NCBI GenBank assembly: GCA_025602915.1
Contig: JAHLJZ010000028.1
Coordinates: 124,001 to 188,000 of the forward strand
Direction: 5' to 3'
Length of the DNA: 64,000 nt
DNA from: Paraphysoderma sedebokerense
Lineage: Eukaryota > Blastocladiomycota > Physodermatomycetes > Physodermatales > Physodermataceae
The notes below the pieces were generated by a model that was given only the letters and a program-made list of their open reading frames with translations, had not been told where the DNA came from and ran no database searches. This document shows, piece by piece, positions 27,563 through 34,848 of the stretch. The translations under genes and the position numbers were made by a program. The first letter of the stretch is position 1, and every line of letters begins with the position of its first letter.

Positions 27563-29545
27563 CTAATATTCATGTACAGTTATAGTGACGTTATATTCCC
27601 CACTGAACTGATGCACTGATTTTAAGGGAATAATAAGGGTACATTCCCCAACCTCAGTGTGTTGGGTTCTTCCATTCTCTTTTGGAGCCTCAAAGATTTC
27701 GTTCAATCTTACTGCAAGCTCTGAATTTAACTTCCCAACAATATTACCCAGCACCAGCTGTTCTTCAACTTTGCCTGTTGTAGGATTGGGATTATGAGTT
27801 CGAAGGCTTTCAACATGGGCAAGAATGGACAAGCGATTTAGGAGTAAATTCCCAATTCGATATTTTATCATCTGATGAATTGCATATGTAGAACCCTTAT
27901 ACACGACCTTCGAAAGCTTTGATCCAGGCATTCGGGGGTCGTTATGATCAATACGAAAGCTCGACACACAAATTGTCGGTCGGAAAATATGAGGTTGGAA
28001 AATATCAAGAAGAACTTGTGCCGATACCTTAATGAATGGAAATCAGGGAAACGTATAATATAAGTGAAAGAAGAACTTCCAGTCAAATAAAAAATAGACA
28101 CTACAAGTTTACTCGACAACTTTTCCAGTCCTTCCTGATTCGTGCTCCATCGCATTCTGTCAAGATAATCATTAACAACTACCAATGTTTGTTTAGCTGC
28201 CTTCTGGAGCTCTACCCATGGCACGCGATCTTGACGTCCGACGTTGTTGAGAGGATTAGCGGGGTCCAACACTAAGGGCCTTTGACAACGAATGGAGGAT
28301 GGTACTGCCGTTTCAGCGTAGAATTTAGTCCACACAATATTTATATTTGGATAATCGGAGATTAATGTGAGAAAATGATAGAAAGCAGCAAGAAACGAAA
28401 AGTCTTTATCATTTTGGCCGTGAACAGCTCGTTCCTGGTTTAAGACTGTCGTAAAAATCGACATAGACAGAAGGAGAGGGGTGATGCTTAATTACCATTT
28501 CTGATGCTTTCACAGCCAGTAACTCAAACAGATAACTCTTTGAATCGAACTTAGAAATAACCATAATCATGGATGCCCATAATTTGGCCATACGAACGAA
28601 AATGTTGGTGTTCCCGTGTTGCTGTTCAATGAATGCGACGCTAGTCTCTGAAAAGCAGGTGGAATAATAACTAACGATATCGTCCGATCGACAATCTTCT
28701 GGAATCTTTGCAAGGTATTCAATGGCTAATTCTAGCTGACGTCTTACGATTCATATGAAATATACCGAGTCAAGATTCCGACAAGATAAATCGGAGACTA
28801 GCAAACACACCTACTTTTGGTCGAAACTATGAGCAAAAAGCAAGTCGACTTCTACACCCATTAATGTAAATTGGAGAGATCGTTTCCCTATCACTAAGTC
28901 TTTGCACTCCAAGTCTTTTTGTAAGCCAGTTTTCAATATGTCGGCAACACTCTCGTAAATGTCATGTTGGAACGGAGGCCGTCTATCATTCAGAAAAGCT
29001 ATGATGTCTACATCGGAAGAAGAACCCAAGCTAGTATTTTTCCCACTTGAACCACTCAAAATCAACCGATCAATCGAAACCCGTCCCTTTCCATGTTCAC
29101 GAAGACATTTCGAAATATGTCCGAGAATTTTATGCGAAGAGTTCTCTGATTTATTTGGAATGAACAATTTAACGAGGGATAACAGGTGAAAGTTGAGAGA
29201 ACTGAATATATAATTCGTTTCGTCCGGGCATTTCAAGTGGGGAAAGCGATCAAGAAGAAAGCAGGATTTCAAGAGGGCATCAGCAATGTCGTGCTTTTTC
29301 CCCTTCGAATTCGAGTAGTACGGGCCAACCAGATTTTGGATGGTTCCACCGTCTAAGTTTTGAATTATTACTGAGTATTGTATAATTTTATTGTAATTTC
29401 CTAATTCGTTTAGGTGCTTCTCGGTCCAGATGGGAGTCAAGCGAAATTGAGAGAGATCTTTTTGAAAACGATTCCACGGGCCTTCTTCCGTAATAGCGAC
29501 GGATTGATGAAACTGGTCCGACAGAAGTGATGTGTTGTCGGCCAT
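27563..29545 (-). CDS. 2'-5'-oligoadenylate synthetase (OAS)-like nucleotidyltransferase
   Basis: Four exons, 29545-28815, 28742-28496, 28434-28105 and 28027-27563; 1773 nt in frame, 590 residues. The catalytic core has the NTase motif LSGSSGKNTSLGSSSDVDII (residues 164-182), with Asp178 and Asp180, and the third Asp234 in GVEVDLLFA. This is closer to animal OAS (GGSSGKGT...SDADLV; VEFDVLPA) than to poly(A) polymerases or CCA enzymes. Exon 2 matches the OAS helix FIEQQ..FVRMAKLWA..KSYLFELLAV, and exon 3 has INIVWTKFYA and RPLVLDPANPLNN (residues 378-390), the OAS1_C signature. Vertebrate OAS makes 2'-5' oligoadenylate when bound to dsRNA; the product and trigger here are unknown. Two extra parts, an N-terminal 150 residues and a C-terminal 150 residues, match nothing I know. 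Splicing style matches the neighbours, so contamination is unlikely. Confidence 0.86.
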
Positions 29546-29802: not shown

Positions 29803-32053
29803 TCAAGCCTCGCCCTGCAACATCTGATTAATCTCTTCCACTTCTTTTTGCATCAACTGAATCCTTGCCAATGCCTTTTTAGCCAGCTCCAACTTTCCAA
29901 ATTTTTTGCATGTCAGCGCATGTTTCTTTGTCTGGGTAATTGCATTTTGTAGAGTTTTTGAGTACGCTGTATTTTCAAAGACACAATCTCACATGTCAGT
30001 ATCCGTCCATTAATCGAAAGACATGGAACCAGGAAATGGGGACCCTACCGTCCATCGTTAATGTCCCCATTTGCACCTGCAAGACCAAAAGATTTAGCTT
30101 CAATTCTAAGGCTTGTTTTTTATCCATTAAATCTTCTGGAGGAGGTTTTTTCTGAGATTGAAATTTAGTTATCTGGGATGTAATGGCGGCAATCTCATTT
30201 TCCAAAACGAGATTCGACACAATTGTATCCGTGCTGGCGAGAACAAAGACAGGTTAGCTATTGAGTGATGGGTACTTAGATGAGAAAGTTACCTTTCAAT
30301 ATAATCCTCAGCCTCTTCCAATTCTGGGACAGATTCAGTCGGTGAAGTTTGCGAGGGCGAAACTGTATTAGGAGCATTCGTCGGTGAAGGCGAAGGAGAT
30401 GGTGTTTGTGGCGAACTAACGGGCTTCGTTGTGGACGGTTTCTCCGGGAGAACAGGTGGTTTGGTATTTTTTTCAACTCCTTTTGCAGGAGTCGCATTTG
30501 CAATTTTTGGAGACACTGGCGGCTCAATTGAACTCGTTGGCGACGTCTCTGCCAGAACTAACCATCTTTCAGACATATTCTGAATATCGGGTTTCAGAAT
30601 TGGCTGGCGCAAACGAATTTGTATTTCCAACTTAGCACCGTTCGATCGTCGATTTGAGTCTGTCAACTGACATACACAGTTAACGGGCGGAAGTGATGGG
30701 GTAAAACAACGGACACTTACTTCGACGACTTCGTGAATCTCAGACTTATTCAATAATGGATCCAATTTTAATATCGCCCTCCCAAGCGTTACGTTCTTTG
30801 CAAGAATGCCGAACCCTAGAATGCCGGCACTCTTATGGAATACTTCAAATGTTGCTTTTTTCCGCTCTAAATGGCGCTGTAAAGTCCTATTCCGCTCTAT
30901 TTTAACCGTTTCTTTATAGCCGTATTCTAATCAAGAAATAATATTTAGTAATTAATAAAATAATTACACCTACAGCAGGCAGTACCTGGATTGATGGATT
31001 TTTTAACAATTTGGGTCTCCCCTTTCCCTGTGTCTCCGTCAAATCCCAAGTCCCATACCACAAAACTGTCGATATCTGCCGCTTGCACTTCTTTTGAACT
31101 TAGACCGTATGCTTTGGTAATATGAACGTGCATTTCCGTCATTGGAATATCGAGATACACGTTTTCAATTTGAAATGAGAAAGTTTGGAAATGGAATTGG
31201 GGCAGTGGTATTTCTTCAATAGATTTGCCTAAGCGAAGTTGAGCATCCTTATAGGAACGGAGAGTAGCGAGGTCGGAAGTGAACGTCTTTTTATGTTTAT
31301 GATACTCTACTGCTTCTTTCTTGAGACCTTTAGAAAGGTAATGTGCGGATATGCTTGTACAACTTTTGATTTGTGATTCTAGTTGGGTTTCTAAATCTGC
31401 CACTGTAGAGAATTGATTCTACATTCATAAAGAGGAAATTTAAAGTCACTTCAACAGACTATAAATAGACAAATAAAAGTAATGCTTACTGTCGGTTCAG
31501 ACAAATTTGTCTTTATTTCTACTGAAGTACTGACATTTGCTTTCTGTTTGACGGCCGGAGATGCTTTCCCTTTCGCCACTGTTGCCGAAGCTACGGGAGT
31601 TGCATTCGTTTGCTTCGATGCGGCAGGATTGTACTCTGTGGCTAAGGCAGGAGGGGGAGGAGGAAGTTTTATATCCGCTTTGGCTTCTTCCAATGACGAT
31701 ACCCCCTCTTTTACGAAATCTAATTTCGAAAGGGCTTGCTGTAATTCTTTGACAACTTTTAACATCTCTTTTGCCTCGTTGAGATTATTTTGTCGCTTGT
31801 AAAATACAGCAGCTTGACGATACTGCTGCAATCGTCCAGAAACTGTCTGATAGTACTGTTCGAATTCTGGAGACGTCTGTAAAGGCTCATTCTTTTTGGT
31901 TGAAGTTTGGGTTGGAGGTGACGAGGACTCTGTTGCATCGGGAACGGCGACAGTAGCATTTGGTTGCTGGGCTTTCGGAGCTGTACTACGCTGTAACGCA
32001 GCGAGTTCTTTTAACAGCGCAGGGTCATTTAAATCTTCGTCCGGGAAGTCCAT
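29803..32053 (-). CDS. CC2D1/Lgd-like protein with DM14 and C2 domains
   Basis: The start MDFPDEDLNDPALLKELAAL is at 32053. Several exons follow. DM14 repeats: SGRLQQYRQAAVFYKRQNNL with LKVVKELQQAL, and QIKSCTSISAHYLSKGLKKE with AVEYHKHKKTF. Between them lies a Pro/Ala/Ser-rich linker. A C2 domain follows (MTEMHVHITKAYGL, SFVVWDLGF, LGRAILKLDPLLNKSEIHE, LEIQIRLRQPI), and a C-terminal coiled coil ends with KALARIQLMQKEVEEINQML. The TGA is at 29803-29805. CC2D1A/B and Drosophila Lgd bind ESCRT-III Shrub/CHMP4 through DM14 and control endosomal sorting. A role in endosome-to-vacuole traffic is inferred here. About 640 residues, shorter than the animal proteins (which have four DM14 repeats). It is on the same strand as the OAS-like gene with 257 bp between them; these are separate transcripts. 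Confidence 0.85.
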
Positions 32054-32780
32054 ATCGTTGAAGTAAGCTAAATTGAAATCTGTGCGAATTCGTACACGCG
32101 AAACTCACTCCTACGCCGTTCTTGCGTGTGCTTTGCAGAGAAGTCGGCACAATAATAATTACCGACAAGGAACATGGGATGGCAGATCGTGCCAGGACCA
32201 CCTCCAACATTCTGTTCCATTCAGTATGTAAATAAGAATGCTAGGATCCACTTTGGTAACTATGTTTTAAAATGACAAGGATGTATCATCGAGCTTCTCC
32301 AATAGATAATATAATCGAGAAAGACAAGCTCGATACAAGCTTAATAACAATCGTAAGCAATAATTCGCAGATTTTCATTGTTTTTTGAAAAGCTTTTGAA
32401 GCGCCAAATTTATAGTCAGTATAGTCGACTCCGACAGATTGTAGCGCTGATGGAAAGCCTCCCGGTTCGCTCACTTCATTTGCCTCTATCCTCCCTAAAA
32501 AGAAAAATTTGGACTACTGTAGTGCTAAAGACGGCATGCCCGTTGAAATTCGCATTGAATGAGGAGACCGAGAGAATGGAGGGGGCGTTGAACAATAGTC
32601 AGTGACGTCACGAACTTAAAGGATTGATACAATAAGCTATCAGGCCTCGAATGAAATTATATTGAAAAACAGTCAAATTGCGCCTCGATCAGGATATATA
32701 AAGCGGTCAGAGACTTTGCTATCTCACTCACAGATTCAAGTTCTGTTTCATCAAAATCAATTACGCAATCACAATTCAAA
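32054..32780. other. Divergent intergenic region
   Basis: 727 bp between CC2D1 (minus) and the repeat-protein gene (plus). Short ORFs here (for example 32378-32605) lack homology. A TATA box for the plus-strand gene is listed separately. Confidence 0.4.
32695..32703 (+). promoter_or_regulatory. TATA box of the repeat-protein gene
   Basis: TATATAAAG, 78 bp before the ATG at 32781, in the same form as before two AA9 genes. A strong TATA box suggests regulated rather than constitutive expression. Confidence 0.5.
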
Positions 32781-34848
32781 ATGTTGAGTTCTACTGATAT
32801 TTCGAAATCCAAAACCGAGAAGGTCGAGGTCTCGCCAGGAGAAGAAATCAAACTCGTTTCTAAAACTCCTGAAGAGAAAGTTGTGACCACCGTAAAATCG
32901 GAAGCTCTTCCCACCGGTTCAGAAGGAACAGCTTCCTCCGGAATCATGGGAAGTACAGGTCCTCAACCTCCGATGTACTCCGGCCTCGAGTCCCCTGTGC
33001 AAGGATTGGCATCAAGCGCCAGCGATATGGCAAGTGCGACCGCTAATACAGCCGCAAATGTCGCAGGTCAAACAGAGCAAACTAGTATGTTAACCCTTCC
33101 ATTCGACAGCTGTTACGTTTGACTGATTTACGAAATGTAATTAAATGTCGCTTTATAGTTTCAAACGCTGCGTCTGGTCCTGCCAATCTTGCTTCAGACG
33201 TGACATCAAAAGCTATCGACACTACAGCTAATGTCGCTTCAAGCGTGGGACAAACCGGTAAGTCTTAATTCTTGCGCCTTTGCATAAGGTATTAACGTAT
33301 TAACTATAAATTCCTGCTACGTATTATAGTATCCGGAGCTGTCACCGGAGCCACAAATCTTGCTTCAGATATGACTTCTAAAGCCATTGATACAACAGCT
33401 AACGTTGCTTCAAACGTCGGTCAAACTGGTAAGTACTATTTGAAGATAACGAAAGGTTAAAGTTATACTCACTTCTACCACTTGGCAGTCTCTGGGGCCG
33501 TTTCTGGTGCAACCAACTTAGCATCAGAGGTCACCTCACAGGCTGTTAATACAACTGCTAATGTTGCTTCAGGCGTCGGCCAGACTGGTAAATGATTATA
33601 GTCTTCTTCAATCTTCTAAGTTCATACACTAATTTACATAATTGCTGAAGTTTCTGGTGCAGCCCATGTCGCGTCTGACGTCACATCGAGAGCTGTTGGC
33701 ACTACAGCAGGAATTGCTACATCTGCTGTTGGCACTGTTGTTCATGGTGTTGAAAATCTTGCTCACAAAGGTAAATATTAGTAATCATAAGGCGACCGAG
33801 TGAAAATTAACTCGATTAATTTTTCTTTCTTAGCCTCCGAGGTCATTGGTTCCGTTGTCGGAAGCGTCACCGGAACTGTCAGCGACGTTATTCACGAGAT
33901 GAGCGGCGCAACGAAAGCAGCAATGGAAGGTGAGTTGACACAAACTTTAACCGTAACGAATGATTAGGGAATTGATTGTAGTTCAAATTTAATGTAGGTA
34001 CCGAACGTAACATTCCAGGGGAAGCTCAAGATACTGCTGTCGAGGTGACAACTCAAGCAACTGAGCTCGCAAAGGAAACCGGACAATTGACTCTCGAAAA
34101 AGCACAGCAAGCAACCGGAACTGCAGCAAACGTTTTAGAATCCACTGCCCACAAAGCTGGCGAGACTCTCGAGTCCGCAACCCAAATTGTATCTGACGTT
34201 ACCGCTATTGCCGCCGGAACCGCCATTGCTGCTGGCCAACAAACTCTTGAAGCAGCTAAAAATGTAGGGCAGACCGCTCTAGAGACTGGCAAAGCAGCCG
34301 CCACCGGAACCGCGCAAGGCATCAAAGGAATGGGCGAAGAGCTGTATGAGACTGGCGAAGCTGTTGGTAATAAGGCTTTAGAAACTGGTCAAGTTGCGGG
34401 CGAGAAGGCTGTAGAAACTGGCAAGGGAGCCGTTGAAGGAGCGAAGGGAATGGGTCGCGAGATGAAAGAAGGATACGAGGCTGGCAAAGCTAGAGGCCAA
34501 CAATCCTCGGGAATTGGCAAACCGCTGCCAATGACACCAGGTACCGGTAGCTCCCGAGGTCTCGGTTCTAGTATGTCGAGTGCGCCTTCCTATGCCCGAG
34601 CAGTGGGGTCTGGCGGTCTCCAATCCTCTCGCACCTCGCAGCCTACCACCACTACAATCACCTCAACAACAGTTCACCAACCAGAGACTGTCGTCGAAGT
34701 ACATCACCGTGGTAACTTCGGTCAAGAACTCCCAACTCAAGTTTTTGTTGAAGAACAAAGTTTTGAAAAGCCAGGGTCGCTCCGAAAGTTGGAAGAGCAG
34801 GAAAGACGTGAACGCTTGACCCCTGGTAGTATTAAGCGTGAAGAGTAA
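32781..34848 (+). CDS. LEA/perilipin-like amphipathic repeat protein
   Basis: Seven exons, 32781-33084, 33159-33257, 33330-33428, 33489-33587, 33651-33770, 33834-33929 and 33998-34848; 1668 nt in frame, 555 residues. Every intron is in phase 1. Exons 2-4 are each exactly 99 nt and code for a 33-residue repeat (pattern VSGAVxGATNLASDxTSKAI plus DTTANVASxVGQT). The body is Ala/Thr/Gly/Val-rich with the periodicity of long amphipathic helices (also KAAATGTAQGIKGMGEELYE, then a Lys/Glu-rich helix), and has no Cys. The C terminus is a Ser/Thr/Pro-rich tail with a KPGSLRKLEEQERRER end. This looks like group-3 LEA proteins, perilipins or apolipoprotein-type helices, which bind lipid droplets or protect during drying. 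I cannot tell which of these it is. Confidence 0.75.
33159..33587 (+). repeat. Tandem exon duplication: three 99-bp exons with their introns
   Basis: Exons 33159-33257, 33330-33428 and 33489-33587 are the same length, same phase (1-1) and code for near-identical 33-residue units; the fourth exon (33651-33770) starts the same way and then diverges. Unit starts are about 160-171 bp apart, so the duplicated unit was exon plus intron. Nucleotide divergence is clear mainly at third positions, so the copies are not very recent. Confidence 0.85.

What the first reader, a model, noticed from the sequence alone, without database searches (positions are those of the whole stretch)
27563..29545. OAS-type 2'-5'-oligoadenylate-synthetase-like enzyme in a fungal gene neighbourhood
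Seen: GSSGKN..SDVD motif with Asp178/Asp180, a third Asp234 in VEVDLLFA, an OAS-like middle helix (MAKLWA, YLFELLAV) and the LDPANP signature of the OAS C-terminal domain at residues 382-387, in a four-exon gene whose joins were checked to be in frame. Known: OAS enzymes sense dsRNA in animals; the family belongs to the CD-NTase/cGAS fold group that acts in antiviral signalling. Inferred: a nucleotide second-messenger or RNA-sensing system may exist in this fungal lineage. It carries about 150 extra residues on each side of the OAS core; the C-terminal one (to residue 590) could be a sensing or partner domain.
Basis: partly seen in the sequence, partly recalled or inferred. Interest (0 to 1): 0.88.

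Follow-up and report, generated by a model that had tools for sequence, protein, structure and literature searches.

The report
OAS-family enzyme in a zoosporic fungus
A parasitic zoosporic fungus carries an apparently intact gene for a relative of the animal virus-alarm enzyme OAS, but without the surface with which animal OAS feels double-stranded RNA and without the known partner enzyme being found.

Summary
Four minus-strand exons (29545-27563) with GT-AG introns encode 590 aa that match OAS1_C at 69.4 bits (cut-off 19.9) and solved OAS2/OAS1 at about 1e-17. The organism is Paraphysoderma sedebokerense (Blastocladiomycota), by 100% identity to a public protein from a contig of the same length. 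That public model is mis-spliced and lacks residues 327-590.

Two trees join it to vertebrate OAS (100/99), apart from CBASS CdnC-type enzymes, with long-branch warnings and no invertebrate or protist OAS included. Asp178/180/234 are intact; R222, L236, S271 and T272 match the OAS1 acceptor pocket and occur in 0 of 30 bacterial rows. None of the four basic dsRNA contacts checked is basic here. The only 2-5A-type nuclease gene found looks like IRE1.

Best reading: an active OAS-superfamily oligoadenylate synthetase, probably not triggered by dsRNA in the vertebrate way, perhaps controlled by unexplained terminal extensions. OAS is already reported from 8 of 12 eukaryotic supergroups (PMC10732462), so this is a new member of a known kind; six searches listed no fungal OAS. 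Product, trigger and effector are untested.

The parts
28815..29545 (-). Exon 1, residues 1-243 and two bases of 244: N-terminal extension (about 1-100), then the nucleotidyltransferase lobe with GSSGK, D178, D180, R222 and D234
   Evidence: public protein P0001 is identical to residue 326
28743..28814 (-). Intron 1, 72 bp, GT..AG
   Evidence: the same join is used in P0001
28496..28742 (-). Exon 2, to residue 326: start of OAS1_C, acceptor residues S271/T272/S275, donor residues K297/Y314
28435..28495 (-). Intron 2, 61 bp, GT..AG; the public model instead uses a 191-bp intron 28305-28495
28105..28434 (-). Exon 3, residues 327-436: rest of OAS1_C with LDPANP at 382
28028..28104 (-). Intron 3, 77 bp, GT..AG
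   Evidence: reading through it gives codon score -0.117
27563..28027 (-). Exon 4, residues 437-590 and stop: C-terminal extension; low-to-middling-confidence model with two strands, two long helices and a beta hairpin
   Evidence: no Pfam or PDB match up to E=10

Best explanation
[quoted passage not shown] Metal ions held by D178/D180/D234 would drive transfer of AMP from a donor ATP (K297, Y314) to an acceptor adenosine held by R222, L236, S271, T272 and S275, making short linear oligoadenylates, probably at least partly 2'-5' linked. Shown here: family membership and conservation of the catalytic and most acceptor-pocket residues. Inferred: activity, product and linkage. The enzyme is probably not switched on by dsRNA along the vertebrate groove; like the sponge enzymes it may be basally active, or be gated by its own N- or C-terminal extension or by a partner. 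The effector is unknown; RNase L was not found.
For: OAS1_C 69.4 bits, against none listed to 25.3 in 6 bacterial relatives; tree support 100/99 with vertebrate OAS in two trees, and joining it to the CdnC-type rows rejected at p-AU 0.002 and 0.03; triad intact; R129, L149, S186, T187 and Y230 of pig OAS1 identical, the first four in 0 of 30 bacterial rows and Y230 F in 30 of 30; loss of RNA contacts; sponge OAS reported to work without dsRNA and without RNase L (PMC6307210, passages).
Against: No activity data. Q193 is S and T190 is S. Catalytic residues are shared with bacterial enzymes that make cyclic products, so a cyclic product is not excluded. One of the 6 bacterial relatives (L007) also exceeds the OAS1_C cut-off (25.3 against 19.9). 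Trees have long branches, the larger one an unsettled bootstrap, and hold only vertebrate OAS.
Confidence: 0.6

Rival explanations
1. A dsRNA-sensing OAS: dsRNA from viruses activates it through a diverged groove or an extension domain, and 2-5A switches on an unrecognised effector.
For: OAS family. RNA viruses occur in early-diverging fungi: 72 of 333 isolates, 15.9% of 44 Blastocladiomycota but 0 of 2 Physodermatales (PMC7482067, passages). The K66-E233 pair of the OAS1 switch is present.
Against: None of the four basic contacts is basic; net charge of the core -2; the K66-E233 pair is also in 30 of 30 bacterial rows; no dsRNA-binding domain in Pfam up to E=10 in the extensions; contacts T24, N27 and N31 lie outside the fragments aligned and were not tested.
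Confidence: 0.15
2. A domesticated bacterial CBASS cyclase (CdnC type) taken up by the fungus, making cyclic tri-adenylate.
For: CBASS_cyclase_a matches at 56 bits and a PADLOC cyclase at 1.3e-13; the OAS group nests beside a CdnC-type subgroup.
Against: 56 bits is far below the 200-bit cut-off; grouping with CdnC-type rows rejected; OAS acceptor residues present; introns; best bacterial identity 24-25%.
Confidence: 0.08
3. OAS gained by horizontal transfer from an animal or protist rather than inherited from the common ancestor of fungi and animals.
For: No other fungal relative was returned.
Against: About 28% identity to pig OAS1 and local GC3 (0.403 against 0.407): any transfer is old. The search sees only relatives sharing exact 5-residue words, so absence elsewhere is weak. 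This concerns origin, not function, and is compatible with the main reading.
Confidence: 0.15
4. A catalytically dead or regulatory OAS-like protein, as in OASL.
For: Human OASL lost activity by changes at the triad (PMC6307210, passages).
Against: Triad, donor lysine and most of the acceptor pocket are kept.
Confidence: 0.1

Closest known systems
Vertebrate OAS1/OAS2 (PDB 4ig8, 1px5, 9h1z)
   Same: OAS1_C domain, catalytic triad (OAS1), acceptor R129/L149/S186/T187, donor K212 and Y230, LDPA.P..N signature; 27-28% identity
   Different: No basic residue at the four basic RNA contacts checked, lower core charge, about 100 extra N-terminal and 160 extra C-terminal residues, no RNase L found
Sponge and other lower-metazoan OAS (from PMC6307210, not aligned here)
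   Same: OAS without RNase L; sponge enzymes reported to act without dsRNA (passages)
   Different: Sponge enzymes are said to have changed both T187 and T190; here T187 is kept and T190 is S
OAS superfamily of diverse eukaryotes (PMC10732462)
   Same: Defined there by clade and PF10421, which is met here
   Different: The text read names fungi only among well-sequenced groups with absences; single members were not available for comparison
Bacterial CBASS CdnC-type cyclases (PDB 6p80; L004, L007-L009, L014-L019)
   Same: Fold, triad, donor lysine; 22-25% identity
   Different: Acceptor pocket, F instead of Y230, tree position, and in 6 tested SMODS scores of 24-38 bits against 12.9 here

Membership tests
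OAS superfamily (as defined in PMC10732462) | PF10421 (OAS1_C) over its cut-off | tested here: met
   69.4 bits against 19.9; note that 1 of 6 bacterial relatives also passes (25.3)
OAS superfamily (as defined in PMC10732462) | Falls in the OAS clade, apart from bacterial CD-NTases | tested here: met
   100/99 with 4 vertebrate OAS domains in trees of 17 and 37 rows; no invertebrate or protist OAS included
OAS (catalytic) | Asp triad (human D75, D77, D148) | tested here: met
   D178, D180, D234
OAS (catalytic) | Seven acceptor contacts of pig OAS1 (PMC6307210) | tested here: inconclusive
   4 of 7 identical (R129, L149, S186, T187), 2 similar (V78 to I, T190 to S), 1 changed (Q193 to S)
dsRNA-activated OAS | dsRNA-contact residues of human OAS1 | tested here: not met
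   1 of 7 sites kept (Q200); K60, R195, K199, K204 are L, V, E, N. T24, N27, N31 not tested
OAS/RNase L pathway | RNase L in the same genome | tested here: not met
   PF06479 found in two exon pieces of one gene that also has a full-scoring protein kinase domain and no ankyrin match in the frames scanned, read as IRE1
OAS (biochemical) | Synthesis of 2'-5' oligoadenylate from ATP | not testable with these tools
   needs purified protein
CBASS cyclase (NF041116) | Curated cut-off of the family model | tested here: not met
   56.4 bits against 200
cGLR (Mab-21, PF03281) | PF03281 match | tested here: not met
   not among the 3 families listed up to E=1
Poly(A)/CCA/TENT polymerases | PAP, CCA or PAP-associated Pfam domains | tested here: not met
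   none listed up to E=1; such sequences were not put in a tree

The most novel reading that the evidence does not exclude
An early-branching fungus runs an oligoadenylate second-messenger system of its own: an OAS whose trigger is not dsRNA on the vertebrate groove but something read by its unexplained C-terminal domain or N-terminal extension, signalling to an effector unrelated to RNase L.
Probability: 0.25. Interest if true: 0.75.

Novelty: new member of a known kind. Interest (0 to 1): 0.5.

Why it matters
OAS enzymes are held to be ancient in eukaryotes (PMC10732462), yet early animals with OAS are reported to lack RNase L (PMC6307210), so the original signal and effector are open questions. 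A fungal OAS with intact chemistry but without the vertebrate dsRNA surface would let one ask what they were, in an organism that is kept in axenic culture (PMC11797010, abstract in a search listing). The case also shows how a gene model can hide such a gene: the public protein stops after residue 326 plus 10 foreign residues and has no precomputed Pfam domain.

Tried and rejected
Relatives elsewhere. Protein search with the full sequence (8000 candidates scored) and with residues 150-415 (1056 candidates) each returned one protein, the public record of this same gene. A search with a 4-row alignment gave 3762 proteins, of which the best 120 were listed; each listed row carries the SMODS domain and the names shown are bacterial, so animal and protist OAS could not be collected. 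Viral contigs: 95 pattern matches, 0 confirmed. Bacterial and archaeal genomes: 88 pattern matches, 3 confirmed at 24-25% identity. Plasmids: 2 records, best E=0.6.

Partners. STING, Mab-21, the PDE12 N-domain and SAVED gave no match, but each control was silent too (0 of 14), so these are not evidence of absence. SMODS gave no match while 2 of 14 controls rang. PF10469 (AKAP7 type; members that degrade 2-5A are recalled) hit one gene; a KH domain lies just before it, so I take it for ASCC1 (architecture recalled) and not a 2-5A partner.

Extensions. A by-eye likeness of residues 28-100 to a dsRNA-binding motif (note) was not supported: no Pfam match up to E=10, chance-like PDB matches (15 retroviral protease sequences, best E=0.0079, its single alignments at 20), and an unusable model there (pLDDT under 50). 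The exon-4 model (pLDDT 61.6, pTM 0.56, one sequence) was not compared with known folds: 6 fold search tries for it and 3 for the other model found the machine busy. The first exon join tried was one base off and gave 588 aa; one search corrects it. Reading intron 3 as coding instead of exon 4 was rejected on codon score (-0.117 against 0.015).

Literature. Searches (3 of 3 papers listed; 3 of 4; 20 of 705; 15 of 746; 20 of 98; 20 of 301) listed no title on a fungal OAS. Eight papers were opened, passages or sections only. Supplements and figures of PMC10732462, where single fungal hits could be shown, were not seen.

Full report
What is there. On the minus strand four exons (29545-28815, 28742-28496, 28434-28105, 28027-27563) with GT..AG introns of 72, 61 and 77 bp give 590 codons and a stop. 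Pfam lists three families up to E=1: OAS1_C at 3.8e-19 (69.4 bits, cut-off 19.9), NTP_transf_2 at 0.01 and SMODS at 0.13, the last two under their cut-offs. Against solved structures there are 8 distinct sequences up to E=1: seven OAS enzymes and bacterial CdnC, best 9.2e-18.

Whose gene. One database protein is identical over residues 1-326: BKA69DRAFT_422412 of Paraphysoderma sedebokerense, longest contig 263,613 bases, which is the length of the window's contig C28. The species is in Blastocladiomycota, Fungi. The public model uses a 191-bp intron (28495-28305) into another frame and ends after 10 foreign residues, so it lacks residues 327-590 and has no Pfam domain recorded. Ten neighbouring frames were scanned: seven match CN hydrolase, IBR, ribosomal S9, MYND, oxysterol-binding protein and ATG22 (two frames), three match nothing; I see no known defence gene among them. 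The gene's GC3 (0.403) equals that of 21 other long ORFs of the window (0.407, sd 0.021), while its GC (0.411) is about one sd lower (0.439, sd 0.025). PF10421 occurs once in the 27.3-Mb assembly, and neither exon 1 nor exon 4 has a second copy.

Is it OAS. Of 6 bacterial relatives, five score 25.3, 19.7, 13.5, 11.5 and 11.2 bits on OAS1_C (the first above the 19.9 cut-off) and one has no listed match; a pig OAS1 fragment scores 271.2. On SMODS the order reverses: 24.0-38.4 bits in the six, 12.9 here. CBASS_cyclase_a scores 56.4 bits, under its 200-bit cut-off. A tree of the fungal core, 4 vertebrate OAS domains, 10 CdnC-type bacterial enzymes and 2 outgroup CD-NTases gives fungal + OAS at 100/99; joining the fungal protein to the CdnC-type rows costs 26 log units (p-AU 0.002), and holding OAS and CdnC-type rows together without it likewise (p-AU 0.0016). 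The label CdnC-type comes from the match of L008 to E. coli CdnC (1.5e-167) and the choice of relatives. With 20 more bacterial rows (37 rows, 36 different) the support is again 100/99, the first test gives p-AU 0.03, and the second was not repeated. Both trees warn of long branches, the larger bootstrap had not settled, and no non-vertebrate OAS could be included. The OAS group sits beside one CdnC-type subgroup (83/70, 95/96), in line with PMC10732462, which places the superfamily inside bacterial clade C.

How it would work. The triad is intact. Of the acceptor contacts listed for pig OAS1 in PMC6307210 (section 13 read), R129, L149, S186 and T187 are identical (R222, L236, S271, T272), V78 is I, T190 is S, Q193 is S. 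In 30 bacterial rows R129, L149, S186 and T187 occur 0 times; V78 occurs in 5 and Q193 in 4; OAS Y230 is Y here and F in 30 of 30. I read this as favouring OAS chemistry, a linear oligoadenylate. PMC6307210 links change of T187 and T190 to mixed 2' and 3' products in sponges; T and S here hint at 2' preference, which is inference.

What switches it on. Contacts of human OAS1 with dsRNA were taken from PMC6019448 and PMC11359028 (passages); PMC6019448 writes K205 for the lysine that falls at 204 in my register, and the number K204 is recalled. At S56, K60, R195, K199, Q200, T203 and K204 the fungal protein has D, L, V, E, Q, G and N: one of seven kept, none of the four basic ones. T24, N27 and N31 lie outside the aligned fragments. 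Human K66 and E233 are kept, but also in 30 of 30 bacterial rows. The core's net charge is -2, against +12 (pig OAS1), +13 (human OAS1) and +6 for each OAS2 domain. The vertebrate dsRNA switch is therefore not expected. Sponge OAS is likewise reported to act without dsRNA and without RNase L (PMC6307210, passages).

Extensions. About 100 residues precede and 160 follow the OAS core. Neither matches Pfam up to E=10; exon 4 matches no PDB sequence up to E=10. The single-sequence model of exon 4 is of modest confidence (pLDDT 61.6, pTM 0.56): two strands, two long helices, a beta hairpin. The model of P0001 has mean pLDDT 52 and is unusable before residue 132. Exon 4 is supported by its open length (6e-5 by chance for one frame), its splice borders, and a codon score between the coding and wrong-frame means.

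Partners. PF06479 is found in two exon pieces of one gene. That gene also has a protein kinase domain, and no ankyrin match in the frames scanned; by eye it has a secretion-signal-like start and a membrane helix upstream, so I read it as IRE1, though Pfam does not confirm its luminal part. Searches for STING, Mab-21, PDE12 and SAVED were negative with silent controls and prove nothing. Piwi-domain genes are present, so RNA interference may be the dsRNA defence of this fungus (inference).

Known or new. PMC10732462 (outline, sections 6 and 7, and passages) defines the OAS superfamily by PF10421, finds it in 8 of 12 supergroups and, in the text read, names fungi among groups whose good genomes lack these proteins. 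Six searches (most with capped lists) listed no title on a fungal OAS. I file it as a new member of a known kind with unexplained extra domains. Interest 0.5: real and testable, but the wide spread of OAS was already known and no partner gives it a pathway.

Noticed in passing
28305-28495 (minus): The public gene model BKA69DRAFT_422412 uses this 191-bp stretch as an intron into another frame and so loses most of the OAS1_C domain; a likely annotation error.
   Followed up: yes
L005 3254-6996 (G000:C19:23753-27495): Kinase plus 2-5A-type nuclease gene read as IRE1; kinase and nuclease domains confirmed by Pfam, the luminal part only by eye.
   Followed up: partly
L024 1417-2702 (G000:C7:301416-302701): KH domain followed by an AKAP7-type 2H domain in two frames, ASCC1-like.
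   Followed up: partly
G000:C38:205185-211696 and G000:C13:355483-356639: Piwi-domain matches: three places close together on C38 and one on C13 (10 matches), so Argonaute genes are present.
   Followed up: no
29803-32104 (minus): Multi-exon neighbour rich in coiled-coil-like sequence that by eye recalls CC2D1-type proteins; the two frames scanned match no Pfam family.
   Followed up: partly
33982-34848 (plus): Long frame of repeated Ala/Gly/Thr/Glu-rich segments that by eye recalls LEA-type stress proteins; not scanned.
   Followed up: no
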